Origin: Voacanga thouarsii
Lineage: Eukaryota; Streptophyta; Magnoliopsida; Gentianales; Apocynaceae
Direction of reading: 5' to 3'
Length of the DNA: 64,000 bases
Assembly (NCBI GenBank): GCA_026120185.1
Contig: JANUWF010001937.1
Location: 1,860,001-1,924,000, forward strand
Positions 1,713 to 53,042 of the stretch are shown here, piece by piece. The notes under the pieces were generated by a model that was not told the DNA's origin, searched no databases, and was given only the letters and a program-made list of their open reading frames with translations. How positions within the stretch are numbered: position 1 is the first letter of the stretch; each line of letters begins with the position of its first letter. A program made the translations under genes and the position numbers.

Positions 1713-1759
<47 letters not shown>

Positions 1760-16734: not shown

Positions 16735-17620
16735 TTAAACATGATTTAGTTTTCTCTTCTTATAGTTGGTCTTAAAGCATGCTTGTCTTAGTCTCTTTGT
16801 TTGGTCCTCTAACTGCGTATCAGAGATTTCTTCCATCAACTTCTTCTCACGTTCCAGTATCTGAATGGCTTCTCTCAATTTCTTCTCAGTCATATGTCCT
16901 TTTTCTTCTTCATTTCACATCTCCTGTAAATCCAAAGGTATGCTCTCAAATTATTAGTTCTTTGTTATTTTTGGGGGCATATAATTAACTTATTTACTTA
17001 TGAATCTCTCATTTTTCATTCATGCACAAGTGTGTGTGAGATAGAACCTGAACATTCTTGATTAGGGTCTCCAAGCTCATGAACTTCTTGTGAGGCCATC
17101 GATGAATTCCCAACTCCCTACATCTTTTCTTGAGAAGGGTTAGGTTAACATTCAGTTCTTTGGCCGTTCGAGTGAGTGACATGTAAAAGTATTTCGAAAT
17201 GGTCGCTCTTGATAATGTCTTGGAGCTACTACCCTTCTCCTTTCTCTGCCTCCTGATTATCTTCTTCTCCACAGGAACTTCATCTGAAGTGATATCTTCA
17301 AGATGCATCTCATGATTCCTCACTCCGAATTCGTTGCCAAGACCACTCCATATTTCTCCTGGAAAAAGAAAAATAATCTCAATGGAGATAATGCCATTAA
17401 ACAGAAGTCTTTGTAATTTTCTAGAATCACGAACTCTAATGTATGATAACTATGAACCATGTTTTGGCTTTATTCAAAATCCACTAGGGAGTAGAAAGGA
17501 TCATGCACAAGCATATCCTCCATCAGAGGAACAACATTAAAAGAAGTCTTTTGAATAAATAGATCAAATTGGAAATCCAAAACAGCATGTCCAGAACTTC
17601 CACCAATTCACAACACAACA
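16735..17620 (-). pseudogene. RKD-type RWP-RK transcription factor, decayed
   Basis: RKD proteins are plant DNA-binding factors active in egg and embryo development. The RWP-RK exon is 17048-17358: acceptor TTTTTCTTTTTCCAG, then SRATISKYFYMSLTRTAKEL, LLKKRCRELGIHRWPHKK and donor CAG|GTTCTA. The signature reads RWPHKK rather than the usual RWPxRK. The C-terminal exon, 16735-16923, begins after TTTACAG and encodes a coiled coil (EKKLREAIQILEREKKLMEE, QTKRLRQACFKTNYKKRK) ending in TAA at 16735-16737. With the splice above, codon three of that exon is TGA (16915-16917) where RKDs usually have Gly, so the product would stop right after the RWP-RK domain. Upstream (17359-17620) one frame resembles an RKD N-terminus (PLMEDMLVHDPFYSLVDFE) but meets a TAA. 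A 4.3-kb LTR lies upstream. Family call is firm; pseudogene status is inferred. Confidence 0.8.
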
Positions 17621-23779: not shown

Positions 23780-24034
23780 ACTTTGTTGGATTTATTTCTA
23801 TACTCTTTATACATTGCGACTTATTTCTGTGAGCTACTTTATTTTTTAGATACTTACTATGTATTTATATTATATATATATGTTTCAGTATTTTAATTAT
23901 ATTTATTTGTGCTTAATTTTAGGTTTTTGCATTATTTTTTGGGATTATGAGCACAGTTTTGACATTTGTATGTGTAGTGTTTTAGAATTGATTTACAATG
24001 ACCTAAAATTATAAAATAAATGCAATAATGGAAA

Positions 24035-24561
24035 AATAAAAAAATTCATCGCAAAATTCTCGTAATTTGCGACGATTTAGCGAGGATCAAGTTTTGGGGG
24101 AAAAAAATTCTGTCGCAAAATCCTCGCAAATTGCAAGGGTTTTATGAGGGCCAAGTTTTAGGAACAAAAAATCCCTCGCAAATTGCAAGGGTTTTGCGAG
24201 GGCTACGGCTTTGGTGAAAAACTCCCTCGCAAGACCCTCGCTAATTGTGAGGGCCAAAATTTGGGAACAAAAAATCCCTCGCAAATTGTGAGGATTTTGC
24301 GAGGGCCACGGCTTTGGGTGAAAAATTCCTATCAAGGGCCAAGTTTTGGAAACAAAAGATCCAACGCATAACCTCGCAAATTGCGAGGGTTTTGCAAGGG
24401 CTAAGTTTTAGGAACAAAAACTCCCTCGCAAAAACCTCACAAATTGCGAGAGCCAAGTTTTGGAAACAAAAGATCCCTCACAAAACCGTCGCAATTTGCA
24501 AGGTCTAAGTTTTGGAAACAAAAAATCCCTCGCAAAACTCTCGCAATTTGTGAGGGACAAG
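24035..24561. repeat. CACTA subterminal palindromic repeats, left block
   Basis: More than ten degenerate units of about 60-70 bp, each with TCCCTCGCAAA and AATTGCGAGGGTTTTGCGAG plus a spacer like CCAAGTTTTGGAAACAAAA. CTCGCAAA/TTTGCGAG alternates in both orientations, giving dense hairpin potential. The block is interrupted by a solo LTR and continues at 25987. Short frames here are periodic translations of the repeats. Confidence 0.8.
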
Positions 24562-25986
24562 TGATGCATATTTATTTGGTATGAAAAATCATATAAAAAT
24601 TAAGTACATTCCCAATCAAGTTTACATTAAAACATTAACCCCAAATTACACATATGAGCAAGCATACTCATCATTAACATAGCATAGGGTTCAAACTAGT
24701 GTCGATCCTCAAGGAACAAGTATGCATTAATCACTTTTCTTTCATTGTTTAACCGACTCAATAAAGTGAAAAAGAAATAAAATAAAAATAAAAATATATA
24801 CATGTCAAGGATGGAGAATTATATAACTCAAACCATTGTTTAGACAAACATGATCTGAAAGTACCCAATTATTATCATAGCTAATTATTTTCTTGGCATT
24901 ATGAAGGATTCAAGTAGATTCACTTCGATGGTCAATCCATAAAATCACTATCCTCTAGATAAATTAGAATCACTTGGTCTTGTCTCAACTAAGTCATCCA
25001 AAGACGCATTAAACACAATCCTTAATTAAATTCCCTTGGTCTTGGCAAATTTAAAACATGAAATCAATCAATGAACTCTTGGCCTCGGAAGACATGAATT
25101 AACCTTTAATTATTAGTTCTAAGCAATTAACCCCCTTGGTCCAGTAAGTTAATAGCCAACAGATATGAAATCAATGACTTGAAACCACCATCAACTCCCT
25201 TGGTCCAATAAGCTAATGGAGAGAAACAACCAACTAATCTCGTAATAAGCGCAAGTAATTAAATACCAAGAAAAATAATCAATTAATCAAAAGATTAAAT
25301 AACTCTAAATATCATGAATATCTAAAACAATGTCAAATCACAATAAAATAATTAACATATCATTGTTCAAGAAAAAGAAAACAAAGTAAAAGAAAGCACT
25401 CATAAACAAGCCTCCTTCTTCTTCCTTTGAAGACCTTCTTGCACAATCCTTGAATTGAAGAATTTCTCCTTTGATTGAGTGATTTTTTGTGATAATCAAT
25501 GAATTCTCCTCTTTTTTCCTTGTGTTTTTCGTCTATTTATAGGCTTAGGAAGTGCCTAAACTCATTGGTGCAATGTTCTTGGCCAAATAGAAGTAGGAAG
25601 ATACTAAAACTTCACAGATTACCAAAAACCGTGTAGAAAAATCATAATCCCGCCTTTTCCTCAGAGCACAGTCGGTGCCGCCTTGGCTACTGGAGCCAGC
25701 GTCGGTTCCACTCTGTTCCGATCTATTTCACCAATTTTTCATCGCCTCAAAGTTCGTGTCAACAGTGCATGGTAGGCGCCGGTTCCTATACCTTGTCCGG
25801 CACCGCCTCGCCTCTGTTTTGTGACGTTTTTGCTTCGTTTTACCCCAAAAATCTATAATAATGAATAAAATACCTTTCCAATGGTAAAATATCAAATATG
25901 AAGGAATATGACTAGTTTTTAAACAAAATGTATTACAAAAGAGCCTCAAATAACTAGGAAAAATATGACTAATTTAGCCCCTATCA
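24562..25986 (-). mobile_element. Solo LTR (Athila/Tat-type family), inverted, with TSD
   Basis: Plus strand starts TGATGCATATTTATTTGG and ends TTAGCCCCTATCA. Its reverse complement aligns with the 13788-15226 LTR along its length, including the GC-rich modules (25655-25800), TATAAATAGACG near 25535 and TAATCACTTTTCT. It is flanked by ACAAG on both sides (24557-24561 and 25987-25991), a perfect 5-bp target duplication, with no internal sequence. This is the product of LTR-LTR recombination after insertion into the CACTA subterminal repeats. Confidence 0.92.
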
Positions 25987-26475
25987 ACAAGTTTCTGGAG
26001 CAAAAGATCCCTCGCAATTTGCAACAGTTTTGCGACGGTTAAGTTTTGGAAATAAAAAATCCCTCGCAAAACCTTCTCAAATTGGGAGGAATTTGCGAGG
26101 ACTATGGCTTTAGGTAAAAAATTTCCTAGCAAAATCCTCGCAAATTGCGAGAGTTTTGCGAGGGCCAATTTCTTTAATGTATAACGACCCTCGTAATCCG
26201 TCACAATTTGCGAGGATTTTGCGACGGACTTATGCACTTTGTCAAAAAAACAGTAGCAAATTTTCTACTTTGTCGAACTTTGACCAAAATTATTCGTCGC
26301 AAAACCGTTGCAAATAGCAACGCTTTTTTCTTGCTCTGGCAAATAGCGATGGTTTTTCTTGGCCGTTGCAAATAGATGTGCCATTTTTTGTGATAGCCAA
26401 AACCATCGCAAACCCGATTTGCGATGGTTTTGTGACAGTTATTGGCCGTCTCAAAATGACAAATTTCCTGTAGTG
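25987..26475. repeat. CACTA subterminal repeats, right block and 3' terminus
   Basis: Continues the CTCGCAAA/TTTGCGAG units broken by the solo LTR, passes into AACCRTCGCAAA variants and ends at TTTCCTGTAGTG (26464-26475). Confidence 0.75.
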
Positions 26476-26834: not shown

Positions 26835-26866
26835 CTAGGTCGTAGGGCCAAGCGTTGCTCGAGATA
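26835..26866 (-). mobile_element. Helitron 3' terminus (hairpin + CTAG)
   Basis: On the minus strand: CTCGAGCAACGCTTGGCCC, then TACGACCTAG, ending before T. It is near-identical in layout to the plus-strand end at 30254-30280. The stem has two G-T pairs, so it is somewhat decayed. Confidence 0.7.
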
Positions 26867-27118
26867 AGTAAATTTTTTAAAAAAATTCTAATAGATTTTA
26901 AGGATTTGTAATAATATGAGAAGTTTGAATTTGTATATAAAAAGCATTATGTTAATTTAATTGTTTTATGTTTTTATAGATTCTATTTTTTTTTTAGTTG
27001 CAACTAAATTATTATGAGCCTTATGAGTATTTAAAATTTGTTGGAAAATGTTATTGTTGAATTTTGCAATGTAATATATTTTTATATAGATATTTTTGGA
27101 TTTTATGCTTTTAAATAT

Positions 27119-27149
27119 GATGTGTGTGTGTGTGTGGGGGGGGGGGGTT
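27119..27149. repeat. (GT)n(G)n simple repeat
   Basis: GT dinucleotides followed by a run of about eleven G in the 3' part of the Helitron. Confidence 0.9.
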
Positions 27150-27365
27150 AATTTTTTGGTTGTTAAGTGAAGGTTTTATGTTATCATGATATCCGATGTT
27201 TCAGTTTTTTTTTTTTTTTCAATTTTCATTTGATTAACATTTTTTCAAACTTTTTTTTTTATTTATAAGAATTGGAATATGCTTAGAATTGGTGGAATTT
27301 GGAATTTGGAATTTGGAATCTCCTTGAAAAATAATTTTTTGTATTCAAATTTCATCTATTAATAT

Positions 27366-27368
27366 TAA

Positions 27369-27405
<37 letters not shown>
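27366..27405. repeat. (AT)n microsatellite
   Basis: About twenty AT dinucleotides in AT-rich Helitron DNA. Confidence 0.95.
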
Positions 27406-27408
<3 letters not shown>

Positions 27409-28291
27409 GTCTAATATATAATTTCTATTTGTATTGAAATTCAAATTTTTTTAGGGCTTTTTTTTAAAAAAAGCAGGATGTTATTTTATTTGTGAATTAG
27501 TTGTTGGGCTTTTTAAGAAATCAAGTTCTCACCCCCCATAAAAACAGAAAAAAGCCTTCAGAAAGAACGAAAATTTTTTATGTATAGTTTAGTTACAAAA
27601 GCACCACTGAGCTTATCCAGCATTCAATGTTTTGGGGGCATTAGGCCTCTTCAAGTGTTTCTTCAAACCTCTAGCCTAACATCCAATAAAAGAAACGAAC
27701 ATTTCAGAAGGAATGTATAACAACCAAAGGCCAAGACCAAGGACATACATCATGAGAAGTGCAGAACTAAAGGAAAATGAAGAATTTCTCAAAGCCAATA
27801 AAGATTCAAATAGACCCTAAAAGTTTTAGGATTTTATACAATAAACGGCTGCCATTTGTTCCTCAAAATCACTTACTTCAAAAGTCCCAGGATGTATCCA
27901 GATTCCACAACCAAGATTCAAAAAAATGAAAATCTTGTGATGTAAATATGGGAGAGAACACAAAAGTACAAAGACATCAACATATATCAACTTCCAAAAC
28001 GCAAAAGAACCATTAATAGATCAAAATTTAGTAAAGTCATAAAGTGCTGCTGCCCAATTAGTTTGTTATATAGATTCTCTAAAAAAATTGCACCTTTCGC
28101 ATCAAATCCAAATAAATGATCCAAATATCCTCAATATTCTCAAACCCCAAATCATTTTTACTGAATCCATTAATGTGGAGAGGATAATACAGAATTGGAT
28201 GCTAGAATCAATAAATAAATGAGGAAGCAAGTACAGAATTTGGAAACTGCACAAACGAAATGGGAGGAGCTAACCATTGTTGTAGGATCAG

Positions 28292-28464
28292 AGTGATTGT
28301 GCTCAGCTACGTCCATTGTAATGGATCAAATTAAAGTGATCATGCTTCATCCATCACTGATAATCAAAATCGCTCACAAACATATCTAAATATCATATGT
28401 TAATATCAATCATATATTAGGTAAGTAGTTATCTCAGAACGATTGTGCTCAGCTACATCCATTA
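28292..28464. repeat. Short direct repeat pair
   Basis: GATTGTGCTCAGCTACRTCC plus ATT occurs at about 28294-28317 and 28441-28463, in the same orientation, next to the LeuRS fragment. Confidence 0.7.
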
Positions 28465-28740
28465 TACATTAAGCGACAGGGACATGGTCTGGTGTCATTA
28501 TTAAGATGATGCAAGAGAATATGGTTGATAAAAAACAATGAGAATTACCTGGAAAATTGATAATTTGTACACCTTGGCCAACCATCACTGTAATTAGGCC
28601 AAATGGATAGCAATACTCAAACTCCTGCTTCATCTGATTAAGAAGATTTTGAGATATATCAGAAGACACCAATAAAGGGAACAACAAATATGCAACAAAC
28701 CATATCATTGTTACCATATCTTGGCTGTATTCTCTGAAGG
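28460..28740 (-). pseudogene. Captured leucyl-tRNA synthetase fragment (cytosolic type)
   Basis: Leucyl-tRNA synthetase charges tRNA-Leu. The clearest stretch on the minus strand reads SSDISQNLLNQMKQEFEYCYPFGL (28590-28660 region), matching the SSDIP..LL.KMKQEFEYWYPFDL segment of plant cytosolic LeuRS, just before its RVSGKDLIQNHL motif. W to C and D to G changes are visible. Upstream (28665-28740) a frame beginning IQPRYGNNDMV resembles the IKPEQMTDEVW part but needs a frameshift to join. Downstream of 28560 the similarity fades. It follows kinesin sequence with only about 50 bp between. A non-functional scrap; the family call is good, the edges approximate. Confidence 0.6.
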
Positions 28741-28788
28741 TAGAGAATGGATTCAATGGCAAAGAGGAAGAACAACAAATTCATGGCC

Positions 28789-29485
28789 TTTGAATTGCTT
28801 TCTTGAAGAATAAGAGCAAATGATCTTAAGCTCATTTTCTTGAGAAGAATCAAAATCAATTGCAGAAGTTGAGCCATTCGAAATTTCAACCTGATTCAAA
28901 GGCCTACATCTGCAGAAGACCCTTATGTTGCCTTTCAGCTCAATCACTTCATTATAGAGCCTCTTTCTCTTAATGCATTCTTCAAGGTATTTCTTCTTCA
29001 GTAGCTCACATTCTTCATGGTACTTCTTTTTCAGCTATTCATGTTCCACACCTCATATGTATCAAAGGAAGAATTTAACCAATTAAAAGGAAATAAAACT
29101 TGTAGAATAACTACAACACTATATTAGAGAGGCAAAACCAGGTGCCAATACAAGAAGCTGCATACTGAGGCTCTAAAGAGCATTAGAAATTTCAGTCCCA
29201 GGAAAAGAATCTGCTTTAATGCCAGTTACTTCATCGCACAGAACTGCATGTTCTTTCTTCAAATTCTGGCTCAAATCGCAAAAATAAAATGAGGAAACAA
29301 ATCTTCATCAAAATTACTATGCAGGTCGATTAAGAATCTAGAAATTGCAAAGAAAATACCTGTAATTTTTTGCTCAGGTCTCCATTTTTTCACAACATTG
29401 GAAGAGTCTGCCTTTGATCTGAACATGTTTCTTGTGTGTCATTTGATCTGTCACTGGCAGATTCTTTTATCTGCCTCAACTTTTT
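28789..29485 (-). pseudogene. Captured KIN14-type kinesin fragment (coiled coil to motor start)
   Basis: Kinesin-14 proteins are minus-end-directed microtubule motors. Three exon-like pieces lie in order on the minus strand. 29360-29485: acceptor TTCAG, coiled-coil-like KKLRQIKESASDRSND with an in-frame stop, donor CAG|GTATTT. About 29163-29270: SQNLKKEHAVLCDEVTGIKA then DSFPG. 28789-29034: after TAG acceptor, KKKYHEECELLKKKYLEE, RKRLYNEVIELKGNIRVF then CRCRPLN and SSQENELKIICS, up to KQFK. The ELKGNIRVFCRCRPLN motif is the start of the kinesin motor. The P-loop and the rest of the motor are absent: after KQFK the sequence switches to DNA that leads into leucyl-tRNA synthetase. A further possible exon lies at 29880-29945 (GFLKIENTSSGKAE). 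Internal stop and missing motor core show it is only a fragment. Confidence 0.8.
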
Positions 29486-29489
29486 CTGA

Positions 29490-30253
29490 AATGATTCACA
29501 AAATTGTTAAAATTATTCACACATCAAAGGAAAAAGAAAGCTATAAGCTGTAAAACTCACTATTATAATATCATTCAAACTCGAGAATTCCTTTGGCATT
29601 ATATATGAATGTGTAGCTGTAAAGTCATAAATACATAAAACCTAATTCACAATCCATTTTCCTTTCTTTGGCTTTCAACTTTCTAAGTGCCAACACATAA
29701 AGTCATTTGCATTTAAACATTTTGGTTCTAAATCTTATATGCAAAGATGTGAACTTATCTATACTACCCACATTCATCCTTCAAAAACTATAGCTTCATT
29801 ACTTAGTAGGACGCAAAACCATTCTAGAACATGCCTAATTCTGAAACATTTTAACTGACAATAGTATTAGGGAAGATTACCCTGGCATCATTTCTGCCTT
29901 TCCACTACTGGTGTTTTCTATCTTCAGAAAACCCGCTATCGCAGCCTCAATGAAGCATCATTGCAAGCACAGATAAATTTTTAAAAAATAATCACAAAAT
30001 TGACCTAAACCATTCACATTTCTTGTGCTAAACCAGAGTAAATACATTGAAGATCTTCTCGTAAGCATTTCAACAAACACCTTTTGTCTCTATCAAAGTT
30101 AAAAAAAAAAAAAAAAACACCGACAAATATTTGGTAAATATTTCAAGGTAATATCTAGATTAGAATATGTTATAAATATATTGATGCAAAAAAAAAAAAA
30201 AACATTAACAAAAATATTACATGAATCAATAAAAATAAAAAAAAAAAATCATA
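29490..30253. other. Helitron interior, intron-like AT-rich DNA
   Basis: Apart from the possible small exon at 29880-29945, no coding homology is recognised. Poly(A) tracts near 30100-30250 lead into the plus-strand Helitron end. Confidence 0.4.
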
Positions 30254-30280
30254 CCGAGTAACGCTCGGCCTCTTACCTGG
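30254..30280 (+). mobile_element. Second Helitron-type 3' terminus, plus orientation
   Basis: A perfect 5-bp stem (CCGAG-TAACG-CTCGG) is followed by CCTCTTACCTGG, which fits a Helitron 3' hairpin plus CTRR. Its reverse complement aligns almost base for base with the start at 26835, so the two termini form an inverted pair facing outward. The next base is C rather than the usual T. No plus-strand 5' TC end is evident to the left. Confidence 0.6.
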
Positions 30281-32030
30281 CTATTTCATGAAAATAGAAA
30301 AAAAATTCAATCAAACTGAATATAAAATCCGAATAAAAAAATAATTAAACTGGACACATGAATAAAAAATAAATAAATCGAAATAAATTTTAGATTCAAT
30401 ACTCTAAAAATAAAAGACGAATAAAAATTTTTTTGATTGGAATTCAAAAGTGCTTGTTCTCTTATAATGTCAGAACCAAAATATTCTTGCAGAAATAGCA
30501 CTGCCACAAATAAGGGTTTCGTGCATCATTTGATGAATCTGATCAAAGATTTAGCACAATAAAAGGTTAAGGGACAAATGGAACACACAATCATAGTAAA
30601 GAAACTATGATGAAAGAGAAGAAAAATAGATGGAGAACATTACCAGTTTATGATAATAATGCTTGCCGCATATTATCTTCGTCCTCCTTATATTAGGGTC
30701 ATGATTGGCCCATGTGATGCCAAAGAGCAATAGTTTTAGTAGTTGCCTTAGGCCCAACCCACTTGCAATTCGACTTCGTCATCACAGGTTAGTTGATCAG
30801 GAAAATCCATGACCCACAATATTTGGCTTTGGGCAGTGGGCACTGCAGCAGTAGAACAACTCCTCAAACTATCCTCCTTCAATGTGGGGGATTTCGTGGT
30901 AAAGGAATTTATGGGAACGGACGATGGTAGTGGAAGCTATAAAGGAAAAGAAAAAGAAAAAGATAGCTACGCCACGTGCAAGAGGTGCAAGCAGACCTGC
31001 AGTCCATCATCCAACACCCCTAATTCATGCTACTACCGTCCTTCTTTCTTTGTTTGTCATCACCACAACGATCAGAAAAGGTACGATTCCAACAAAAGTG
31101 CGAGGATATATGTAGTGCTGTTGCACTATAACTGCAACAGATTGCCCAAATGTGTTGTACCCTTACAAAAGAACATAAGATCAGGATTGAGGAGCAGTCT
31201 ATAAGCCATAGAACAAAGAAAACTAACTTCATTCTACTACACTGAAAACCATTATCATGAATGTAAAATGTTTTGAAAACAAGTCATTTTATCTCAGCCA
31301 AATCCTGAGCCACTGACATAAGAAAACTGCAAGTTAGCTCATTTAAGTATAAAACCAAGAAAAAGTAAAGGAAAAACTGACAGCATGAGTTGTTCTTTTC
31401 AGTTCTTACAAAGGAACCCTTTTTTTCACTCCATAAATTAACCATTAAGCACATAATTATAACTGGAAATTATCTTGCATAACCTATCATTTTGAATGTA
31501 TACCAGATTTCATTTTACATATTTATTAAAAGCAAAAATGGGCTAAATTAGTCAGAAAAAAACTTGAAAATTATTTCTTTAACCGGAAATATACGTGTCT
31601 CTTTCTCGGGGGATTTAAATAAGTAGTTAGTGTCCACTGCAAGGACATTAGATCAATTAAAACAACCGAGATTAGATATTGGATGAGAAAAAGGTCAACT
31701 CCAAAACTCATTGCATGCAGGTAAATGTTTTCTGTGTGTAATTCAACCCCATGCTAATACATTTTGAAAAATCGAGAGACAATGACCCACCTTGCACTAT
31801 GAATAAATTCATTCCCTGTATTGGACCCAAGAAAAAAGAAACACATGGCACGTTCATATCAATTAATAGGTGCAGAATCAATATTCCATATCCTATACCC
31901 CAAATACACAACTATTCCACATCCTGTATGGTGAAATGCAACACTTACAGTAAGATGACACAGTATAGAAATGTAGCTGACATTTTTTACTTGAAATTTT
32001 CCATCACAGAAGTGTTTAGAGGGAACTCAC
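30281..32030. other. Helitron interior, no recognised gene
   Basis: A 131-codon plus-strand frame at 30809-31204 (lysine/cysteine-rich middle such as YATCKRCKQTCSPSS) has no family I recognise and overlaps other open frames. It may be a further captured fragment or chance. The remainder is AT-rich and intron-like. Confidence 0.35.
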
Positions 32031-32250
32031 ATTGTTTCAAGGATGACCAAGCAGCCAGGGCAGCATTCTTCTCAGCTTGCTTTTTGTTCTTGGCCGATTC
32101 CCCCGTGAATGTAATTCCTGCCAATTCCACTGTTCCTGTAAAGACTGGTAGGTGCCCCAAGCCAGACCTGAAAGTTGTGTAATAGGGTAAAGGTGCTCCA
32201 ACTCTTTGTGCAATCTCTTGTAGGAGGTTCTTATAAACTCCAGTTTCATC
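32031..32250 (-). pseudogene. Captured DRB exon with one double-stranded-RNA-binding motif
   Basis: DRB proteins (HYL1/DRB2 family) bind double-stranded RNA and assist Dicer-like enzymes. The exon starts after TTTAG and ends at AAACAAT|GTGAGT. It reads ETGVYKNLLQEIAQRVGA, then TTFRSGLGHLPVFTGTVELA and GESAKNKKQAEKNAALAAWS, an uninterrupted dsRBM (alpha-beta-beta-beta-alpha) like the second dsRBM of DRB2/3/5. The basic KNKKQAEK of the RNA-binding helix is intact. Neither the first dsRBM nor a start codon is nearby. The frame reported on this strand by longest-ORF logic is a different one; the dsRBM frame is the meaningful one. It lies between the RRP44A and kinesin pieces in the same orientation. 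Confidence 0.85.
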
Positions 32251-33942
32251 CTAAACATGGGTTCATCCAATTAAGAATGCACACAAAAAGAAAGAACAGT
32301 TTTGAATAATCAATCAAAAGCCATCATCCCAAAACAACAAATGTCTATAATTATTTCATATTCTTAGGTGAACCTTCCAACAACATGATGATCAGAATAA
32401 GACTTGAGAGGAGAATAAACAAATTACCTATAGCAGGCAGGAATAGTTTAGACATAAAAGACAAAAGAGGACCACTAATTTAGATAGGCATGGCAAGAAG
32501 ATGCAAAAGTTGCACTAATAAAATCTCAAAAGGAAAGTAACCAAAAAATCACACAAACATTTTCTATATCAAAGAGCTCAAAGAAAGTAAATTCTGGAAC
32601 TGTATTATAGTTAAAAAAAATGCAACTTAGTTTCTCATTATCCAACACAAGATTGGTGGTTGTTCAATAGCTCAAAGCAAACAGCACTGCTGATTGATTT
32701 CAAGGAGATGTATTTGGCCATGGTTCAACCAATTACAAAGTCACCAACTAAAAATCATTCAAAATTCAAAAAAAAAAAAAAAATCAAAAGAAACCCATTT
32801 CAGCCATAAACCATCCCTGAATGTAGCGCATCTGGCTTTGGTTCACATATTCAACCCAATCTTGCCACCATTTGTTGGCATTCATTAAAAAATGGAAATA
32901 AAAAGTAGCATTTTAAAATCATGCTCATCCAAAATATATGCAATAAGGAATAGAGGTATTCAAATCAACTGACCAAGCAACATGCATATTTTCTAGGGTG
33001 AATAGAAACAACAAACAAAAAGACAATCTTTCAAAGCAAAATGTTCAATCCACCAAAAAATAATAATAATTAAAAAATTATAAAAACTTCCATGGGGAAA
33101 AAGGCATAGGAGAAGAGAGGAAGAGCCTTAAATTCTTCGAAGGTGAGCTTGGGAATCACTTGCGAATCACCACCACTATCAATACCATATGTATTTTTTG
33201 GAAAAAAAAGGCCTACAACCACCAGAAAATATAAGACTTATGAGAAAATTATTAACACTAAAGTCCTATATGATGTGAAAGACATCATGCTAATTAGGCA
33301 AAATATAAAGGAAAATGAGTTGAAAATAATTCATTTACACTTATGGTTCTAGTTTCAATACAAATGATCTAAGAAAGTCTTATATCGAAGTAGAAAATCC
33401 ATTTGTTCAAGAAAAGAAAGAAGAAAAGAAAGCTGATGCAGGAGGGGAAAAAAAGGAAAAAGTTTCAAGAGTGCAAACTCAGCTGTTGGGAAGTTAGTAA
33501 ACCTACTCTGCACCCATTTAAACCATATTGCTCTGTGATTTTATCAAAACTAATCTCAAACAATGAAATCAAAATCACATTGAGGAAAAGCTCGTGAGCA
33601 ATTGCCACAAAACAATTCTTCCATAGAGAAATTCTTCCCTAGAGTAGTAGATGACAGTGCCTCCATACAGATTTTTTTTACATTACACTACTTTTATTAG
33701 ATGAGTGATTTTTTACTGAAACTTAACATTGACTCATACAGATGATAATAACTAAATTTAAACTTCAAGCACAATGGAATCTAAAATGTCAGCATGTGTC
33801 TATGAGCCTTGATTGCCTAAATGTTTAAATTTATAGTGTTTAGGATATCCAAATGGCTGCCTGAATTCTAAGATTGCAGCCTACATTAAAACTTCAATAA
33901 TTTTGGTGCAAAACAATCAGAATATCTTCCACTTCCAATATT
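32251..33942. other. Helitron interior between DRB and RRP44A pieces
   Basis: AT-rich, with poly(A) runs. No coding homology recognised; small frames are not supported by any domain. Confidence 0.45.
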
Positions 33943-34454
33943 CTTATTCTTAACCTCCTCCAACACCACTGCTAGCACCACCACATCATCAATTGCAGGA
34001 TTCTCCAGCAAGTCAATCTAATGAACATTCAAAAAACAAACGCAATCATGAACAATTTTAAAAAAAAAAAAAAACTCAGTCTTTACATGGTCCAATAAAT
34101 ACGAACATTCAAAATGATTGGGAAAAAAAAAATAATTCAATAAACTTGATTGAGGACAACATTGGTATCCACAATAATAATTTTGGACGTCGTACAACTT
34201 AAGCGAGCACCAGAAACATCACAGGCATTGCAAAACGGAGCTCCGCAGTATATATCATCTCTCAAATAGTGTTCCCTAACAACCTGCAAACAAACCAATT
34301 TATCAAAGTTTTATCTTCAACTTAAACCCTAGTTTTCGAGCATCAGAAGAACAAATATATATATATTTAAAAAATCTGAAGATTAAGGTCGCGGCTAGAC
34401 TTTTCGGATTCCGCCTTGCTTTGTTTTCCGCATGAACGTCTTGTTCTGCAGCAT
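33943..34454 (-). pseudogene. Captured RRP44A/DIS3 5' portion (first three exons)
   Basis: RRP44/DIS3 is the catalytic nuclease of the RNA exosome; its N-terminus carries a CR3 motif and a PIN endonuclease domain. Exon 1 (34401-34454) encodes MLQNKTFMRKTKQGGIRK and ends at AAAA|GTCTAG. Exon 2 (34146-34283) follows TTTGCAG and reads VVREHYLRDDIYCGAPFCNA, then IIIVDTNVVLNQ to CAA|GTTTAT. Exon 3 (about 33943-34017) follows CATTAG and reads IDLLENPAIDDVVVLAVVLE then EVKNK, after which homology stops without a donor. The three exons join in phase with no stop codon, and Asp of IVDTN, a PIN acidic residue, is kept. About 500 bp upstream (to the Helitron 5' end) probably came along as promoter. Everything after the first third of the PIN domain is missing. 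Confidence 0.88.
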
Positions 34455-34944
34455 GATTCGAAACTCAATAAGCGCTGAGGGTTTTGGGGAAGTGAGGTTT
34501 ATCAATGGCTACCGCAACTTTGGGTCTTGTTTATTTCTGCAGTAGCTTTCACCACGCAAAGCAATGGTTTTTACCGTTAAACTCTTGACATCTGTTTATG
34601 GAACCGGGTCGGGCATGATGAGTCCGTAAATATAGGTCGCCGGAACGGATTCCGTTCCGGTATTGACGGACCGAAGATGCTTTGTGCGGCCTACTGACGG
34701 CGGAGGCGGTGCTGGAGGGACCACCGGTGCTGTCGAAGGTGGTGGTGCTGTGAGATCTGAGACAGCGAACAAAACCCTTGAACCTCAGATGGAATGAAGA
34801 GGAGGAAAGAGAAGAGGAAGAAAGACTGGGTTTTTGGAATAGCAAAAGGTAGAGGAACGGAAGTGATATATCAATAGATCTATTTATGAGTTGCCATATG
34901 TCGTTATCATATAAAGCCAAGTGTCGTAATAGGAGGATTCTTCT

Positions 34945-34966
34945 TCAGCTTTTATATATATATAGA
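34945..34966 (-). mobile_element. Helitron 5' terminus
   Basis: Minus strand reads A|TCTATATATATATAAAAGCTG, a very common 5' end for plant Helitrons. Confidence 0.75.
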
Positions 34967-42630: not shown

Positions 42631-43458
42631 TGTAACACCCCCTACTAAGTGGCCTAAATGACCAGGGAATGTCGCCCTGTCCTCTTAGACAAAGAGTCTT
42701 TATAACAAAGGAAGAAAAGAAAGCAACAAGGTATAACTAATATTAACTTCAAAGCGGAAATCGAATTACTGTCTAAGTAAATCCCAATATAGACTCACAA
42801 GAATAAAACAATGTAAGCCAAAAGAAATCTTTATACATCATCACTAGAGTATTGGTAGAAGAGTATCAAAACCTAATCTATTATAAAATGATCTTTAGCA
42901 CTTGGTCTTGATAAACATACACTACCCTGAAATTTGTGGTTAGAAATGTCGTGTGAGATTATAAATAATCTCAGTAAATTCGCAGTGTGTGAAATTGACA
43001 TGTACGAAATCAATGACATGATGCATGCATATGAAATAAATCGAACTGATGTAATCATCAGAAAATTTGCATTTGTCCATCTCAAATCCTTTATCAAATT
43101 TTTGGAGAGAAAACCACAAGTACGATTAATTATGAAATGTATATAAGAATTTTGTCAAGTAATCAATTCAAGTCAAAATTCCTGGAACAAAAATTCATTT
43201 CTACAAAAGTCTTGAATCCATACCACACAAACATGACCACGACATACATATTGCCAAAAAATCACATATAAGTGATCAACCTATAGAGAGAATACTCCTC
43301 CTCCTTCTTCTCTCTCACACATTTGCCTTAGGTTCGGATGTCCCACGTTTATCCGTCAGAGTTCTCAAAACTCTACTGCTAGCTAAGGACCCGACTAAAC
43401 TACTGGAACTGACGCCCCGTTTGGAAAGGACAGTTTCTCAAAAATGGCCAATCAACCA
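42631..43458 (-). repeat. Ty3/gypsy LTR B, part 1 (interrupted by copia)
   Basis: Plus strand begins TGTAACACCCCCTACTAAGT, closely similar to LTR A, and is interrupted after ATCAACCA by the copia element. AACCA (43454-43458) is the left target duplication. The LTR resumes at 54394. Confidence 0.85.
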
Positions 43459-44803
43459 TGAAAAACCTTAGGGGGGGGGGGGTGAATAAGGTTTTTGACA
43501 AGCAAAAATAACTTTTTTCGATTGTCTAAAATGCTGAACAAGAATGATCACCAAGATACTTGGATTGACTTTATAGATGCATAGAAAGCTATCCAAGTAC
43601 TCATAGATGTATATTCAGATTTAGATAGTGAAAGATCATAAAAACAAAATGCATGAACCACTAAAATAAAATGAGACAAGAGATGTATAGTGGTTCGATC
43701 AATAATGATCTACATCCACTACCTTAAGCCCCATACTTAAGGATTTTCAACCATATTTCATTAACATCACTTAATGAAACAGCCATATACAAGAGAGGAT
43801 CACCACACTAGGTTTTAAACAACCTCTCAAACACATCAAGGCTCACCCCTATGGGTTTTACACCACAACCTTGAACATACACACAACAAGGCTTACCCCC
43901 ATGGGTTTTACACCACAACCTTGAACATACACGCAACAAGGCTCACCCTTATGGGTTTTACACCACAACCTTGAACTTACAAACAAAAAGGATCACCCCT
44001 ATGGGGTTTTACCACACAACCTTGCACTCACAAACAGAGAATATAAAAATCAATAGAACAGAGATAAGCTCACTTACTTGAGCAGATATTCTCTCGGATA
44101 CAAGCCACAAAATACTTTTATCTTTTATACACAATCAACTCACTTTGAAGCTTAAGATAAAAGGAGATTTTTGAAAATATTGAGCAATAGTGTTTCTAAG
44201 ATGAATGTTTCAAAAATCTTACTTGTAATCTTGTTTTAAGGGCTATTTATAGAGCCAAAAAGTGGAGTGCCAACGGTCATAAAAAAAAATGGCGATAAAT
44301 TTTTCTGTTTAAACTCATCCGAGTTTTGGACTCAGGTTTTGGACAAAGATGCATCCAAAAGTTAAATCCAAAATGGTACATCCGTGACAAAAAATTTTCA
44401 ACCCGTTTTACAGGATTTTGGATGAACTTTTTGGATTCAAACTGTACCATCCAAAATTCTGCGAATTTTAAAAACTTTGAAAATCATCTCCTTTCAAGCT
44501 TCAAGGTAAAGTCAAATGAATCAAAAGATAAGAGGATATATGAAATAATAAATATACCTTAATGAACACTTCCTAGTCTAATATTCTTCATAAAAAGTCT
44601 TCTTGATGTATAACTCCTTATACTTGATTTTCCATTTGATCTTCCATTCTTGAAATCAGTGATGAAGGAGTCGCCAACAATTCTTATCTGAAGACTTTAG
44701 AAGAACAAAGGTCAATCATATCCTATCACAATAAATTGACATGTTAGTCCATATCCATGTTTATCATAAATCAAAACATAAAAGAAAGCCATCAGGGCTA
44801 ACA
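43459..44803 (-). repeat. 3' LTR of the SIRE-like copia element (1345 bp)
   Basis: Plus strand TGAAAAACCTTAGGGG to AGGGCTAACA. A G-run of about 13 near its left edge and a minisatellite at 43838-44035 (four units of about 50 bp: AAGGCTCACCCCTATGGG, TTTTACACCACAACCTTGAA) are shared with the other LTR. Confidence 0.93.
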
Positions 44804-44817
44804 ATCTCCCCCTTTTT
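44804..44817 (-). promoter_or_regulatory. Polypurine tract of the copia element
   Basis: Minus strand AAAAAGGGGGAGAT directly precedes the 3' LTR. Similar GGGGGAGA motifs recur at about 45001, 45211, 45832 and 45926 in the 3' region. Confidence 0.8.
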
Positions 44818-46166
44818 GAGTGATGACAAACATGACACATTTGATATACAGATAGAAATAACATGATGAGAAAAAAGTGCAAATAATTGTAACAAGTCTC
44901 ATAGAGATCTTATAAGTAAACATATTTCAATAATCTTAAGGCATGTAATATCTCTATATAAATATTCAGAATAGTTTGATAGAGATAAAATGCTAAAATG
45001 CTCCCCCTAAATATATGCTTATGTGAAAATTTCGAACATAAGAGGAAATAGAAGAAGTAGCGATTTATTCATCCAGAAAGTGTATCCAAAATAGTTTTGG
45101 ATGAATGTGTGTTTTCAGAATTTTTTTTTGATGGGCTTTTGGATGTCCAAAACATTTTTCAAAAACTGCTTATAAGAGTATTTGTTTTGGAAATGAAGTT
45201 TCTGAGTCTAAAACTCCCCCTGAGTCAATGCACCATAAAAATTTATCACAGAATTTTGTTTGAAAGATCCAATCATCATTCAGAATTCTATGTGCATAAC
45301 TGTTCATGCCAGAACTAATTTATGCTGCTCATAACAGTTTATGCAATTTTCATGAAATTTTGTAACTGTTCAACAACAGTTTCAGTTTCAGAACAGTTTC
45401 AGCAGTTACTTCGCATGTAAAAAATAAAAAAAAAAAACTCTACATTAACAGTTCAAATTCAATTCATCAGTTTCATATCAGATTATTATGCAGAACCCAT
45501 AACATTTTCAGACTAGCATATTTCCTTCTTCCTGGTGAATGCCAACAGCATTATGTCGACAGTCATGCAGACAATAATATTTTCTCAGATCAACATTCAA
45601 CATTTTCACAACAGTATTTTCACAGACTATCATTCAACATTTTCACAGCAAAATTTTCACAGATTAGCATTTAATATTTTCACAGCAGATTATAAAATTT
45701 TCGGACCAACATATGTAGACAACATTGTCTTCAGATCAACATGTTTCATTCTCCCCTTGTCATAGATCATCAGACAATCCCATAATATTCTTACTACCTC
45801 AATAATATAACATTTCATAATATTTCCATTTCTCCCCATAGATCATCAGACAATCTTCAAATTTTCCCCATAATTCTTACTGCATAAGCCAATATCATAA
45901 CAGTCTACGACATTCCTATTTCTCCCCCTTTGTCATCAATCAAAAAGAGGCATAGCAAACAGAGAAATAAGCAACAATTAGTAGATAGATAATTAAGCTT
46001 AAAAACAAACATCAGTAATTATCCAAAGACAGGAATATAAATGGCGGAAAATAAATTGTTCATCATCCCAGTTGCGATCCCAGAAAACAGTTTATCCAAT
46101 ATTGATTGTCTCAGATTTTGCTCCAGCACCTTTCTTGGAAAACTAACCAGCAATCCTGCTGGATTT
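44818..46166. other. 3' non-coding region of the copia element
   Basis: No protein domain is seen. At about 45590-45690 there are two to three degenerate units of about 38 bp with CATTCAACATTTTCACAGCA. PPT-like motifs are scattered through the region. Confidence 0.6.
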
Positions 46167-47555
46167 TCACTTCACAACTACATGTTTCTGCCTTTTTCCT
46201 TTGGGTTTGGGAGAAGGAGGAAGAGTTTCTATTTTCTGAACGGGAGAAGGTGGAAGAGATGGTTCAGGAGAAGGTTCAGGAGAGGAATCCTTTTTGTCCA
46301 CAGGCAGTTTAGATTTATCTTCAACTTTATCATGTTCAGAAGTTTTAGCAGATTGCTCAATGACAGATAGTCTGTTTCCTAACAGTTTGATTTCTGAGTT
46401 AAAAGATTCCAACTTCTCTACAAAAGAACTGATTGCACTCAAAATATTCTCAGATAGATCAAAGTCCGGAACAATTCCTTCCTCATCAATCTTTCTTTTG
46501 GTTCCTGACTTTCCTTCTTCCTTGATCTTTATCAAGTTTTCCTTCTCTTTTCCAGTAGATTCTCTCAACAATTTCCATGAATTTCCTTCCCTAACATATC
46601 CCATTTTTTCAAAAGAGTCATAGCTGTAGACATTTATTTTTGAGGGATCACATGGAATAGAATTTAAATCAACTTTAAAAAACTGAAAGACTTTTGTCAA
46701 CAGATTGCATAAAGGAAGAGCTTTGCTTGAGGTGTTACGAGATTGCAACATAAGCTTGGTGGCTAAAAAACCAAAATTTATCTGCCTCTGTTCAACCAAC
46801 CCAAGCATTACCACCATTTGCAGAATACTGATAAAAGTTTTATGACCAGAACTGGGAACAATCATGGTTGATACCATGTGGTGCAAGATTCTACCCGTCC
46901 CATTCAGCCATTTTGAATTTCTATTTCTAGAACTTTCAAAGCTTTTCCCTCCAGTGAACAGTTTTTCAAAATTTTTCAGATAAAAAATTTCTTTCCCCTC
47001 AGGAAATTTATTCATCTCAAAGTACTGAAGGCCGACATCTTTAACATCACAAATTCTGTTAAACAGCCTATGATCAAATTCTATTTCTCTGCCCTTAACT
47101 CTGGATACATACCATCTAATCATAAAGCCTCCCTCACTTTCTTTCAACTTTCCTTTTCTCAAATTAGCGTAGAATTCCCAAACCAGAGGAGTATATATTT
47201 TCTCATCGACTGACAACAAACTTCCCCACCCAATGTGATCAAATATGTCCAGAATATTAGACAGATTTAAGAAGGCAGAATGATTAACCCGATAGCCAGA
47301 GATCACAGTTCTGTTTCTTGAAACCCAATCATTGTACTCGGATTCGCATTTAGAGTCAAGAAATCGGGGTACCTGGTTTGAAGAACTTGGTTGTTCGGAA
47401 GATGATTCAGACGAATCATAGTGAATAGCCGAGAAGTGAGGCTATGGAGAGGCTTTTTTGGCTTTGCCTTTTGAACCCAAAACCTTTTTCTGTTTCATCT
47501 GAGTGGGTTTTTGTTCCTTTTTCGATTTTGGAATAGAAGATTTAGTTTTTGCCAT
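46167..47555 (-). pseudogene. Extra 3' ORF of the copia element (putative plant transposon protein domain)
   Basis: The minus-strand frame runs from ATG at 47553-47555 (MAKTKSSIPKSKKEQKPTQ) to a stop at 46167, 462 codons with one in-frame TAG (47442-47444, codon 38). From the next Met (47306) 379 codons are open. After a Lys-rich, then Ser-rich N-terminus comes a folded-looking region (about residues 75-290) with YTPLVWEFYANLRKGKLKES and VKGREIEFDHRLFNRICDV, which matches my memory of the plant-specific 'putative plant transposon protein' domain found with retroelements. The C-terminus has a likely coiled coil (ILSAISSFVEKLESFNSEIK), a Pro-rich stretch (SPEPSPEPSLPPSPVQ) and a basic end (KPKGKRQKHVVVK). 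It lies where SIRE elements carry an env-like ORF, but I see no signal peptide or clear membrane segment. Confidence 0.65.
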
Positions 47556-47964
47556 TGAAAGATTCAAGCTTTTTCAAGGCTTTTTGGGTTTTCAAAGAGA
47601 AAGAACACGGAGAAGTTATTTTGGAGGAATGACGGTTTCAAGAGTTTCGAGAAAGAGAAAATCAGATAGCCTTGAATGTCTAGAAGAATGAGAGAACAAA
47701 ATGCCTTGGAAACATAAGTGTTTCTGAGATGTTTTGAAAAACGCACAAACCAATTTTTTAAAACTCGGAATTTGGAATAAAGGAATATTAACCATTGATT
47801 TTGGAACAAGACAAGATCCGAAATCAATGTCCAAAAGAGTGTTTCCCTGAAATGCATTTTGGATGTAGAAATTGGATTCCAGCAAAGATATTTTGGATGT
47901 AGAGTTGTGTTTCCAAAATCCTTTTCTTCACAATTCCTGCACAAGAAGACCTTACACAAAAAGA

Positions 47965-49448
47965 TTAGTTATCAAATTCTTGTAATGCCCAAACCTCTTC
48001 TCAAATTGTTGAACCTGTCTTCAGCTAGAGGTTTAGTAAAGATATCTGCAAGTTATTTATCCGTTGAGATATATTCAACACACACATCTCATTTGAGTAC
48101 GTGATCTCAGATGAAGTGATGTTTAACTTCAATGTACTTTGTTCTCGAATGCTGCACTGGGTTTTTTTGTTAGATTGAGAGCACTTGTATTATCACACAT
48201 TATAGGTACACAATTAAAATTTAAATTGAAATCTTGCAGAGTATTCTTCATCCATAAGATTTGAGCACAACAACTTCCTGCTGCAATATATTCAGCCTTA
48301 GTGGTGGATAATGAAATGCAGGCTTATTTTTTACTGTGCCATGATACCAGTAAGTGTCCAAGAAATTGACAATGGCCACTAGTACTTTTTATTTCAGCTT
48401 TACACCCTGCATAATCTGCATCAGTATATCCTATAAGATCAAAGGTGTTAGTACGTGGATACCATAATCCATAATCATACGTCCCAATAAGATATCGAAG
48501 TATGCGTTTGACTGCACTCAAATGAGATTCCTTCGGACGAGATTGAAATCGAGCACAAAGACATACTGAGAACATGATATCTGGTCGACTAGCAGTAAAA
48601 TATAGTAGACTTCCAATCATACCTCTATATTTTTGTTCATCTACCTTCTTACCCTTTTCATCTTGGTCAAGCTTTATGTATGTACTCATGGGTGTGCTGA
48701 TTTCTTTTGCTTCATTCATTCCAAACCTTTTGAGCAACTCTTTGGCATACTTTGCTTGGTTAATGAAGATTCCATCTTTAGTTTGTTTAATTTGCAGTCC
48801 GAGAAAGAAGTTCAATTCTCCCATCATACTCATTTCAAATTCTTGCTGCATAGTCTTAGCAAACATCTTGCATAAAGAGTCATTAGTAGCGCAAAAAATA
48901 ATAGCATCAACATAGATTTGGAAAATTAGTAAATCACCAGGGTAATTAGATTTGATGAACAATGTATTAGCAATTAAGCCTCTAGAAAATCCTTTTGAGA
49001 TTAGAAAACTACTAAGCCTTTCATACCAAGCTCTAGGAGCTTGCTTCAATCCATAAAGAGCTTTAGATAATTTGAAAACATGATTTGGAAAGAGCTCATG
49101 AGAAAAATCAGGTGGCTGCTCAACGTACACTTCTTCTTCAATAAAGCCATTTAGGAAAGCACTTTTGACATCCATTTGATAGAGCATAAAATTTTTAAAT
49201 AACGCAAAGGCAAGTAACATTCGAATAGATTCTAGTCTAGCAACAGGTGCAAATGTTTCATCATAGTCAATGCCTTCCTCTTGATTAAATCCTTGAGCTA
49301 CTAATCTAGCTTTGTTTCTAATTACATCCCCATTTTCATCAAGTTTATTTCTAAAAACCCATTTTGTTCTAATAACATGATGATCATGCGGTCTAGGAAC
49401 AAGTTTCCAAACCTGATTTCTTTCAAATTGATTCAACTCTTCTTGCAT
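47965..49448 (-). pseudogene. Copia reverse transcriptase-RNase H, inactivated
   Basis: RT copies the element RNA and RNase H removes it. A 374-codon open stretch (48324-49448) starts at [20 protein letters not shown] and includes [58 protein letters not shown] and [19 protein letters not shown]. The active site reads YVDA where copia elements have YVDD, removing a metal-binding Asp. RNase H begins at [20 protein letters not shown]; after a TAA at 48324 it continues to 47965 with AEYIAAGSCCAQILWMKNTL and LADIFTKPLAEDRF across stops and a frameshift. It would follow integrase in the Gag-Pol polyprotein. Confidence 0.9.
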
Positions 49449-51480
49449 GGCGATAATCCAAAATTCATCATGTAATGCAATATCAATGCAGTTAGGTTCA
49501 ATATTTGAAAGAAGAGCAAAGTTGTCGATAAAATACCGTCGAGTTTTAACTCATTGGTTTGGATCTCCAATGATTTGCTTCTTTGGATGGCTTGATTTGT
49601 ATTTCTAATCTTTCGGCAATTGATGATTTGCAGAATCTTCAATTTGATGTTTTTCTTGTTCATTCTGTAATTCTTCAATTTCCTTCTCTTTTGCATGAGT
49701 ATCTAATGATGAAGCATTTACCTGATCTAACTTAACTTCATTTGAATTACCTACATCGTCGTCATCTCTTTTTGAAGTATAAATGTTAGATTCATCAAAT
49801 ACAACATGCACAGATTCTTCCACACAAAGAGTTCTTTTATTGTATACTTTATAAGCTTTTTTGTTGGAAGAATATCCAAGAAATATAGCCTCATCGGACT
49901 TGCTATCAAATTTTCCAAGATTATCTCTTATATTTAGAACAAAACATTTGCATCCAAAAACTTTAAAATAAGATATAGAAGGAGTTTTGTCAAACATAAG
50001 TTCAAAAGGAGTTTTTCTTAAAAATGGTCTTAACATAACTCAGTTTATTGTATAGCATGCTGTGTTAACAGCTTCCGCCCAAAAGTATTTTGGAATAACA
50101 TTTTCACAAAGCATTGATCTAGCCATTTCTTGCAAGGTCCGATTTTTCCTTTCAACAACACCATTCTGTTGAGGAGTTTTAACTGCTGAAAAATTATGAA
50201 AGACTCCATTTTCATCACAGAAGTGAGTAAAGTCGTTATTACAAAATTCTTTTCCATTATCACTTCTAATATAAATCAGTTTGCATCCAATCGAGTTTTG
50301 GACGCGCTTAATCAGTTTTGAAAATTCAGTAAAGGTTTCATCTTTTTGTCCAAGAAATAATGTTCAAGTGAATCTAGAAAAATCATCAAACAATTACATA
50401 TGCATATTTTTTACCTCCAAGAATAGCAGTTCTCATAGGTCCAAATAAATCCATATGAACTACTTCAAGAGGTTTTGAGGTAGAAATCATTTTCTTTGGT
50501 TTAAAAGAGGTTTTGATTTGCTTTCCAAATTGACATGCATCACAGATTTTGTGTTTATTAAATTTCATTTTTGGAAGCCCCCTAATAAGTTCTTTTGAGG
50601 ACAGTTTGTTTAACAAATCAAAGGATACATGACCTAATCTTCTATGCCAAAGATAACCATCATTGTCATGAATGGATAGGCACCTAACTCCATTAGCTAC
50701 AAGGTCATTGAGATAAAACACATATACATTTCCCATGCGTTTGGCAGTAAAGACGGTTTCAAGATTTTCACTGTCAAGTATAGAGCAAGAATATTTTTCA
50801 AAAATAACTTTGCAACAATTGTCACAAAGTTGGTTAATGCTAAGCAGATTATATTTTAGATCATCAATAAGTAAGACTTGCTTTATATGTTAAGGAACCT
50901 TTACCAATGTTACCAATGTCGAGAATCTTTCATTTCTTCTTGTCTCCAAATGTAACAAATCCTTCATTTGTTGTCTGAATATCTTCTAACAATGCTACAT
51001 TTCCAGTCATATGTCTTGAACAACCGCTGTCTAAGAACCACTTGGTAAAGCTTAAAGGCCGTGCCTATATATGAGAAGAAGAGATGATTTTTGGTACCCA
51101 CACTTTCTTGGGTCCATGAAGGTTAGTACCATTTTCTTTGATTTTCTAGAAAGTAGCTCCACCGGATTCCACTTTTCTTTTAACAAGACATCTTGAAACT
51201 ATATGTCCAGGTTTCTCACAATACGTGCATGCCTTGTATGTGCTGTAAGAAGAAGTAGGTTTAGCATGCTGAAACTTGTTCTTTTTGTAATTATTCTTAT
51301 GTTCATATCCTAAGTTATTCTAATTTTCCGCTAAGCCAAATCTGGGCATGCAAGTTTTGTCTTTATCCTCATGTTTGTATTCTAAGCCACTTCGATTTCC
51401 AGCATAAACAAATCTGGGCATGCAAGTTTTGTCAGTATCCTCATGGTTATATCCTAATCCACTTCGATTACCAAAATGAT
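49449..51480 (-). pseudogene. Copia protease and integrase region, broken
   Basis: On the minus strand the protease active site appears near 51000-51040 as WFLDSGCSRHMTG. GAG-pre-integrase and the integrase HHCC zinc finger follow at 50386-50736 (HRRLGH, then CDACQFGK) with VHMDLFGPM, containing the first catalytic Asp. The core continues in two further frames (50045-50263 and 49605-50036: SISYFKVFGCKCFVLN, FDSKSDEAIFLGYSSNKKAY). At least three frameshifts or stops separate these pieces, so no functional integrase can be made. Order PR-IN-RT is diagnostic of Ty1/copia. Confidence 0.85.
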
Positions 51481-52982: not shown

Positions 52983-53027
52983 TAAGATCTTTTCTACAAG
53001 ACTGTTAAACCAAGAATATGAAGACTT

Positions 53028-53042
53028 AGCTCTGATACTGAA
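53028..53042 (-). promoter_or_regulatory. Primer binding site of the copia element
   Basis: Minus strand TTCAGTATCAGAGCT lies against the 5' LTR and matches the TGGTATCAGAGC initiator tRNA-Met site with one or two changes. Confidence 0.75.

What the first reader, a model, noticed from the sequence alone, without database searches (positions are those of the whole stretch)
26835..34966. Helitron carrying pieces of at least four unrelated genes in one orientation
Seen: typical 5' and 3' Helitron ends at A/T, with RRP44A exons 1-3, a DRB dsRBM exon, KIN14 coiled-coil/motor-start exons and a leucyl-tRNA synthetase piece between, all on the element's sense strand and with usable splice sites. Known: Helitrons capture host exons and can express chimeric transcripts. 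Inferred: an RRP44A-promoter-driven transcript could splice RRP44A exons to the DRB, kinesin and LeuRS pieces.
Basis: partly seen in the sequence, partly recalled or inferred. Interest (0 to 1): 0.75.

Follow-up and report, generated by a model that had tools for sequence, protein, structure and literature searches.

The report
Helitron transposon carrying six gene fragments
An 8.1-kb plant jumping element (a Helitron) has picked up broken pieces of at least six unrelated genes and copied them around its host genome; it is a well-documented example of a known process, with no sign so far of a working new gene.

Summary
The finding is real. Window 34966 to 26835 (minus strand) is one non-autonomous Helitron. 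The host genome (1.35 Gb, unnamed) holds two other full-length copies (95.3% and 95.7% identical over 8.1 kb) and two internally deleted ones sharing both ends; eight of eight further loci examined share only the last 683 bp. Six gene fragments were identified, all in sense: RRP44A, a ubiquitin protease with a DUSP domain (UBP), DRB2, KIN-14S, leucyl-tRNA synthetase (weak evidence) and ribosomal protein eS4. Every block has a close relative elsewhere. The stretch with KIN-14S, LeuRS and eS4 (31557-27512) also exists, essentially continuous, at two other loci read, there without DRB2; so the element was assembled in steps, partly from a block already composite. The proposed chimeric transcript is not supported: the nominated join 32031 to 29485 creates TAA, KIN-14S exons of the window copy hold three stops, and other copies break RRP44A or DRB2. 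Against this, DRB2 is open in the window copy and KIN-14S in L010. This is ordinary Helitron gene capture, well described in maize and Brassica; the traceable assembly is the useful part.

The parts
26835..34966 (-). whole non-autonomous Helitron, 8132 bp, inserted between A (34967) and T (26834)
   Evidence: ends read; full-length relatives L009 95.3% and L010 95.7%
34866..34966 (-). 5' terminal region, TC(TA)nAAAG
   Evidence: matches limited to about query 3-101 at C870, C479, C188, C510, C652; ends
34682..34866 (-). block X, GC-richer, unidentified, repeated in the genome
   Evidence: query 101-285 matches at C719, C1037, C479 and others; tandem copies in L042; its start also stands before an RRP44A 5' piece in L033 and L034
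33933..34683 (-). RRP44A fragment: about 230 bp upstream of the ATG, exon 1 (34454-34401), exon 2 (34283-34146), start of exon 3 (34017 on)
   Evidence: gene L032 (C808) 94.5% over e284-1034 and coding beyond it; RRP44 structures 2.3e-23
32822..33938 (-). block U: UBP fragment with the start of the DUSP domain (WWQDWVEYVNQ)
   Evidence: matches over all or part at many loci, 81-95%; relative L040 (88% over e1929-2138) reads on into DUSP, Pfam 1e-13
31556..32733 (-). DRB2 fragment with dsRBM exon 32250-32031 and flanking intron
   Evidence: donor-like locus L039 (C465) 97.7%; DRB2 structure 8e-38; 70 of 73 residues as Vitis DRB2
32730..32823 (-). left part of block V, cut off from the rest by the DRB2 piece
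   Evidence: e2144-2237 lies about 200 bp before e3410 in L044 and L045
27512..31557 (-). block V: pre-assembled composite of reversed ORF, reversed Helitron-like end, KIN-14S, LeuRS and eS4 pieces
   Evidence: continuous in L044, 94.7% over 4050 bp; in L045 in two pieces, 93.5% and 94.7%; same contigs
30797..31201 (+). reversed ORF (135 aa), unidentified, possibly a gene piece with a GT donor near 31082
   Evidence: open in the window, in L012 and over the part that aligns in L011; stops in L009 and L010; no Pfam, PDB or protein-database match
30254..30281 (+). reversed Helitron-like 3' end CCGAGTAACGCTCGG...ACCTGG
   Evidence: 3 mismatches to the outer hairpin, 0.01 chance matches expected; present in L009-L012, with single changes
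28789..29485 (-). KIN-14S fragment, three exons of coiled coil and motor start, with three in-frame stops in the window copy
   Evidence: tblastn with Camellia KIN-14S 1.4e-52; Pfam Microtub_bd 3.3e-11; stops
28549..28633 (-). LeuRS-like exon piece (MKQEFEYCYPFGLI)
   Evidence: only NCBIfam matches are two LeuRS models at one site, 0.044 and 0.14; relative in L045 0.0055 and 0.027; none in Pfam or PDB
27590..27675 (-). ribosomal protein eS4 (RPS4) exon 2, broken by a stop and a 1-base shift
   Evidence: Pfam RS4NT 3.7e-9 and plant eS4 structures 1.6e-7, both with the break bridged; unbroken in L041 and L044
26835..27517 (-). AT-rich 3' terminal region with hairpin and CTAG
   Evidence: e7450-8132 shared by L013-L020 without the rest

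Best explanation
This is a non-autonomous, gene-capturing Helitron that was assembled in steps and then amplified as a unit. Shown: its two ends recur together in four other loci (in L009 the first two bases are not seen); its cargo breaks into blocks that each match another place in the genome; one 4-kb block holding three of the six gene pieces exists on its own elsewhere without the DRB2 piece; and relatives carry different cargo behind the same 5' 1.3 kb. Inferred: a Helitron transposase supplied in trans moves it by peel-and-paste replication from TC to CTAG. DNA segments with introns are picked up when replication or repair switches template at a few shared bases. A later capture placed DRB2 inside block V, replacing about 200 bp. 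The cargo is decaying neutrally and makes no conserved protein.
For: Shared ends and full-length relatives. Sister elements L029 and L030 share e3-1319 (5' end, X, RRP44A, start of U), then carry other cargo including a glycosyl hydrolase 35 piece, and end in the same type of 3' tail. Donor-like loci: RRP44A gene L032, DRB2 piece L039, UBP piece L040; for eS4 only V-type loci such as L041 and L044. Arrangement without DRB2 in L044 and L045. Short shared bases at the joins, read by eye from sequences printed: TTGGAA for RRP44A to U, CTTAAA for eS4 to tail, ATTGG and TTCT around DRB2. Introns kept. No Rep, helicase or RPA domain. Decay of frames.
Against: L012 lacks RRP44A but also half of X and part of U, so it looks like a deletion, not an early stage. 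The window copy has an open DRB2 frame and few changes in RRP44A (N 2, S 3 against the parent), too few to exclude some constraint; KIN-14S exons have no stop in L010, and none in the parts aligned in L011. No empty site was tested. The KIN-14S and LeuRS genes were not sought successfully (that search did not complete); of the UBP loci listed only L040 was read for its frame, and I did not establish that it is the gene; the eS4 gene proper was not identified. L039 has F to C and shares the M to L change seen in 0 of 100 aligned DRB proteins, so it may be a partial copy and not the working DRB2 gene. RRP44A's 5' part also stands with the start of X in two other repeats (L033, L034), which show no later RRP44 exons, so the history of that join is not simple. 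No Helitron ends were found by a simple pattern around L045, so the vehicle of block V is unknown.
Confidence: 0.9

Rival explanations
1. The element makes a functional chimeric transcript or protein: RRP44A exons 1-2 spliced to the DRB2 exon give a 137-residue protein ending at the DRB2 border.
For: The frame is open across exon 1, exon 2 and the DRB2 exon in the window copy, and GT/AG sites are present.
Against: The next nominated join gives TAA; exon 3's intact acceptor competes and its donor is lost; 3 of 3 other copies with the DRB2 exon have a stop in it, L010 has a stop in exon 1, L029 one in exon 2. No RNA evidence. A frame open in one copy only is what decay by chance would also give.
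Confidence: 0.04
2. The blocks were joined mainly by recombination or nesting among existing Helitrons and composite repeats, and not by direct capture from host genes.
For: Blocks U, V and the 3' tail are themselves repeated; V is carried whole at other loci; a reversed Helitron-like end lies inside V; L029 and L030 have other cargo from e1319 on; X start plus RRP44A 5' part occur together in the repeats L033 and L034.
Against: The whole RRP44A block matches a gene that continues beyond the captured part, and DRB2 matches one locus outside the family among the candidates scored (40 of 91, 40 of 85), which looks like direct capture for those two.
Confidence: 0.4
3. A cluster of pseudogenes or a segmental duplication that merely looks like a Helitron.
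For: Block V is continuous at another locus.
Against: Common ends with different flanks in several loci and a 3' hairpin with 0.01 chance expectation.
Confidence: 0.02

Closest known systems
Maize gene-fragment Helitrons (helA), PMC3288121
   Same: Non-autonomous elements with CTAG 3' ends, several gene fragments each (0 to 12, mean 3), internal pseudo 3' ends, multiple ends in 28.7% of helAs, stepwise capture (abstract, second part of section 4, and section 7 read)
   Different: Another plant; the hairpin here is of the GAGCAACGCTC type, unlike the printed maize pattern; its internal end is reversed; a pre-assembled multi-gene block could be traced
Gene-capturing Helitrons of Brassica napus, PMC11986588
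   Same: A eudicot genome with 3156 capture events; 35.25% of capturing elements carry two or more fragments (passages read)
   Different: Captured sequences average 230 bp there; here blocks of 0.7 to 4 kb keep introns
Expressed maize Helitrons with alternative splicing, PMC4528327
   Same: Captured exons with splice sites that can give chimeric transcripts (passages)
   Different: No expression evidence here, and frames are broken in several copies
Tgm-Express CACTA element of soybean, PMC1947982
   Same: DNA transposon with several host gene fragments (search listing only)
   Different: Different transposon class

Membership tests
Helitron | 5' TC, inserted after A | tested here: met
   window and 3 of 4 other copies whose 5' end could be read; L009 not, L029 and L030 unread
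Helitron | 3' CTRR followed by T | tested here: met
   CTAG then T in the window; CTAG or CTAA in 13 of 15 loci, T next in 12 of 15
Helitron | hairpin about 10 nt before the 3' end | tested here: met
   5-bp stem with one G-T pair in the window, fold z only -0.99; CCCGAGC/GCTCGGG stem in L012 and L014
Helitron | no terminal inverted repeats, no target duplication | tested here: met
   read by eye from the ends and flanks
Helitron | Rep/helicase (autonomous members only) | tested here: not met
   no such Pfam domain in six frames (this scan also missed the PIN and RS4NT pieces, so it is not very sensitive). I take it as non-autonomous
Helitron | empty site between A and T in a relative | not tested
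   no related genome was searched
Gene-capturing Helitron | fragments of unlinked genes with introns between the ends | tested here: met
   RRP44A gene on C808, DRB2-like locus on C465, other blocks on other contigs; contigs are not chromosomes
Gene-capturing Helitron | expressed chimeric transcript (optional) | not testable with these tools
   no RNA data

The most novel reading that the evidence does not exclude
The window copy, alone among the four copies examined that hold the DRB2 exon, keeps an open frame there, and this joins the RRP44A N-terminus (64 residues) to the DRB2 dsRBM (73 residues). If spliced from 34146 to 32250 it would make a small double-stranded-RNA-binding protein that could interfere with DRB2 complexes.
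Probability: 0.03. Interest if true: 0.6.

Novelty: new member of a known kind. Interest (0 to 1): 0.3.

Why it matters
It documents, in one genome, how a composite Helitron is put together: that a ready-made block with three gene pieces was reused, that the DRB2 piece was placed inside that block, and that relatives swap cargo behind a shared 5' part. That makes the stepwise-capture model testable join by join in a plant outside maize and Brassica.

Tried and rejected
Chimeric protein through KIN-14S: rejected for the window copy, stop at the join and three in-frame stops. RRP44A-promoter-driven expression: not tested; only about 230 bp upstream of the ATG belong to the RRP44A block. L012 as a stage before RRP44A capture: rejected, it also lacks parts of X and U. 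A nested small Helitron from 29758 to 30281: considered, not supported, because homology to other loci continues on both sides of 30281. Identity of the reversed ORF: it reminds me of a plant protein with the motif PSFFVCRRHDDQKRY, recalled only; no database match. A second copy of the ends inside the window: for the 5' end only a TA run at 27392 with 3 mismatches, for the 3' end one reversed hairpin. The KIN-14S and LeuRS donor genes and the working DRB2 gene: genome searches not answered.

Full report
What was checked. The minus strand reads A|TCTATATATATATAAAAGC at 34966 and, at 26835, a short hairpin, 10 nt, then CTAG|T. The hairpin sequence has 0.01 expected chance matches in the window at up to 3 mismatches. 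Besides itself it has one match, reversed, at 30254-30270. A looser scan for any hairpin plus CTRRT is not informative by itself: 13 sites found, 3 to 8 in each of 10 random sequences.

Host genome. After many unanswered calls the host genome could be searched: 1,345,666,469 bases in 1848 contigs, unnamed; the window is C969:1860001-1924000. KIN-14S of Camellia sinensis is the closest of the kinesins among the 120 listed proteins (87.8% over 82 residues), a hint at Ericales and no more.

Copies. With element coordinates e = 34967 minus window position, L009 (C899) matches e3-8132 at 95.3% and L010 (C620) e3-8131 at 95.7%. L011 (C1043) has three internal gaps, and L012 (C1178) lacks e148-1473. 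Mismatch between window, L009 and L010 is about 3.3% per aligned base. Eight of 8 further loci fetched for the 3' part alone (L013-L020) match only e7450-8132 within the 10 kb taken (L017 has a second partial copy, L020 a short extra match), so this 683-bp tail belongs to other elements too. These counts are lower bounds: 40 of 173 candidates were scored.

Ends. Relatives read close to CCCGAGCAACGCTCGGGCCTACGACCTAG followed by T; the window copy has a decayed stem and a weak fold (z -0.99). Of 15 loci printed, 10 end CTAG, 3 CTAA, 2 neither (L014, L019); T follows in 12. The 5' end is A|TC plus a TA run in window, L010, L011 and L012; in L009 the TC is not seen; in L029 and L030 the anchor was not found.

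Blocks. RRP44A: e284-1034 matches the RRP44A gene L032 (C808) at 94.5%, and that gene goes on coding beyond the captured part. Two further repeats, L033 and L034 (2.8 kb alike at 94.8%), hold e306-551 next to the start of X (e111-182), and a tblastn with RRP44 found no later exon there; this is unexplained. Block U, e1029-2145, is found in whole or part at many loci (81-95%, 40 of 91 candidates scored). Its relative L040 reads on into a DUSP domain (Pfam 1e-13), so U is a ubiquitin-specific protease piece. DRB2: e2234-3411 matches, outside the family and among the candidates scored, only L039 (C465), 97.7%. At residue 65 of the exon the window and L039 have L where 100 of 100 aligned DRB proteins have M, so L039 may be a partial copy. 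Block V, e2144-2237 plus e3410-7455, is continuous in L044 (94.7% over 4050 bp) and nearly so in L045, with about 200 bp in place of DRB2. The two halves of V hit the same contigs C657, C631, C919 and C1087; only C657 and C1087 were read through. V holds the reversed ORF, the reversed end, and KIN-14S, LeuRS and eS4 pieces. LeuRS is weak in the window (0.044 and 0.14) and better in L045 (0.0055 and 0.027); both NCBIfam hits are LeuRS models each time, while Pfam and PDB gave nothing.

Joins. Comparing element and donors shows a few shared bases at joins (TTGGAA, CTTAAA, ATTGG, TTCT; sequences printed, shared bases read by eye, no statistics). This fits template switching but does not prove it. 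L029 and L030 share e3-1319 with the window and then carry other cargo, including a glycosyl hydrolase 35 piece (1.9e-11). Their cargo is alike (93-94%).

Coding capacity. In the window KIN-14S has three in-frame stops and a frame break. In other copies: DRB2 stop in 3 of 3 that hold the exon; stop in RRP44A exon 1 of L010 and exon 2 of L029; shift in exon 3 of L009. Results the other way: the window's DRB2 exon is open; L010's KIN-14S exons have no stop, nor do the parts aligned in L011; L012 has two stops there and L009 a shift. Changes against the RRP44A parent are few and mixed (window N 2 S 3, L009 N 4 S 5, L010 N 7 S 3, L011 N 3 S 4, L029 and L030 N 7 S 6 each); with about 3.5 times more N than S sites these ratios lie below 1, but the parent's own constraint adds to that and the numbers do not decide selection. 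I infer neutral decay from the stops.

Literature. Maize helAs carry 0 to 12 gene fragments, mean 3; 28.7% have multiple ends, and 99 of 100 sampled inner 3' ends lack an intact CTAG (PMC3288121, parts read). The inner end here, CTGG in the window, fits that, but it is reversed. Brassica napus has 3156 capture events (PMC11986588, passages). No paper describing this element came up in the searches.

Verdict.

Noticed in passing
L029 7753 downwards, L030 1376 on: Sister Helitrons with the same first 1.3 kb (RRP44A) but other cargo, including a glycosyl hydrolase 35 (beta-galactosidase-like) fragment.
   Followed up: partly
L033 4958-5310, L034 4580-4940: Two copies of another repeat that hold the start of block X next to the RRP44A 5' region and start of exon 1, then unrelated sequence.
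   Followed up: partly
window 24030-26475: Repeat-rich stretch next to the Helitron that begins, on the minus strand, with CACTACAGGAAA, CACTA-transposon-like (name recalled).
   Followed up: no
window 43458-54394: Copia retrotransposon (RVT_2, gag, minus strand) with flanking repeats 93.7% alike and an extra ORF matching Pfam Transposase_32 at 46170-47441.
   Followed up: no
window 17012-17449: ORF with an RWP-RK domain (1.8e-18).
   Followed up: no
window 1586-2953 and 6184-7776: Two arrays of related tandem repeats of about 152 bp.
   Followed up: no
window 30240-30425: Short stretch around the reversed Helitron-like end, with 21 further partial matches in the genome, homology running on both sides of the end; its nature is unexplained.
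   Followed up: partly
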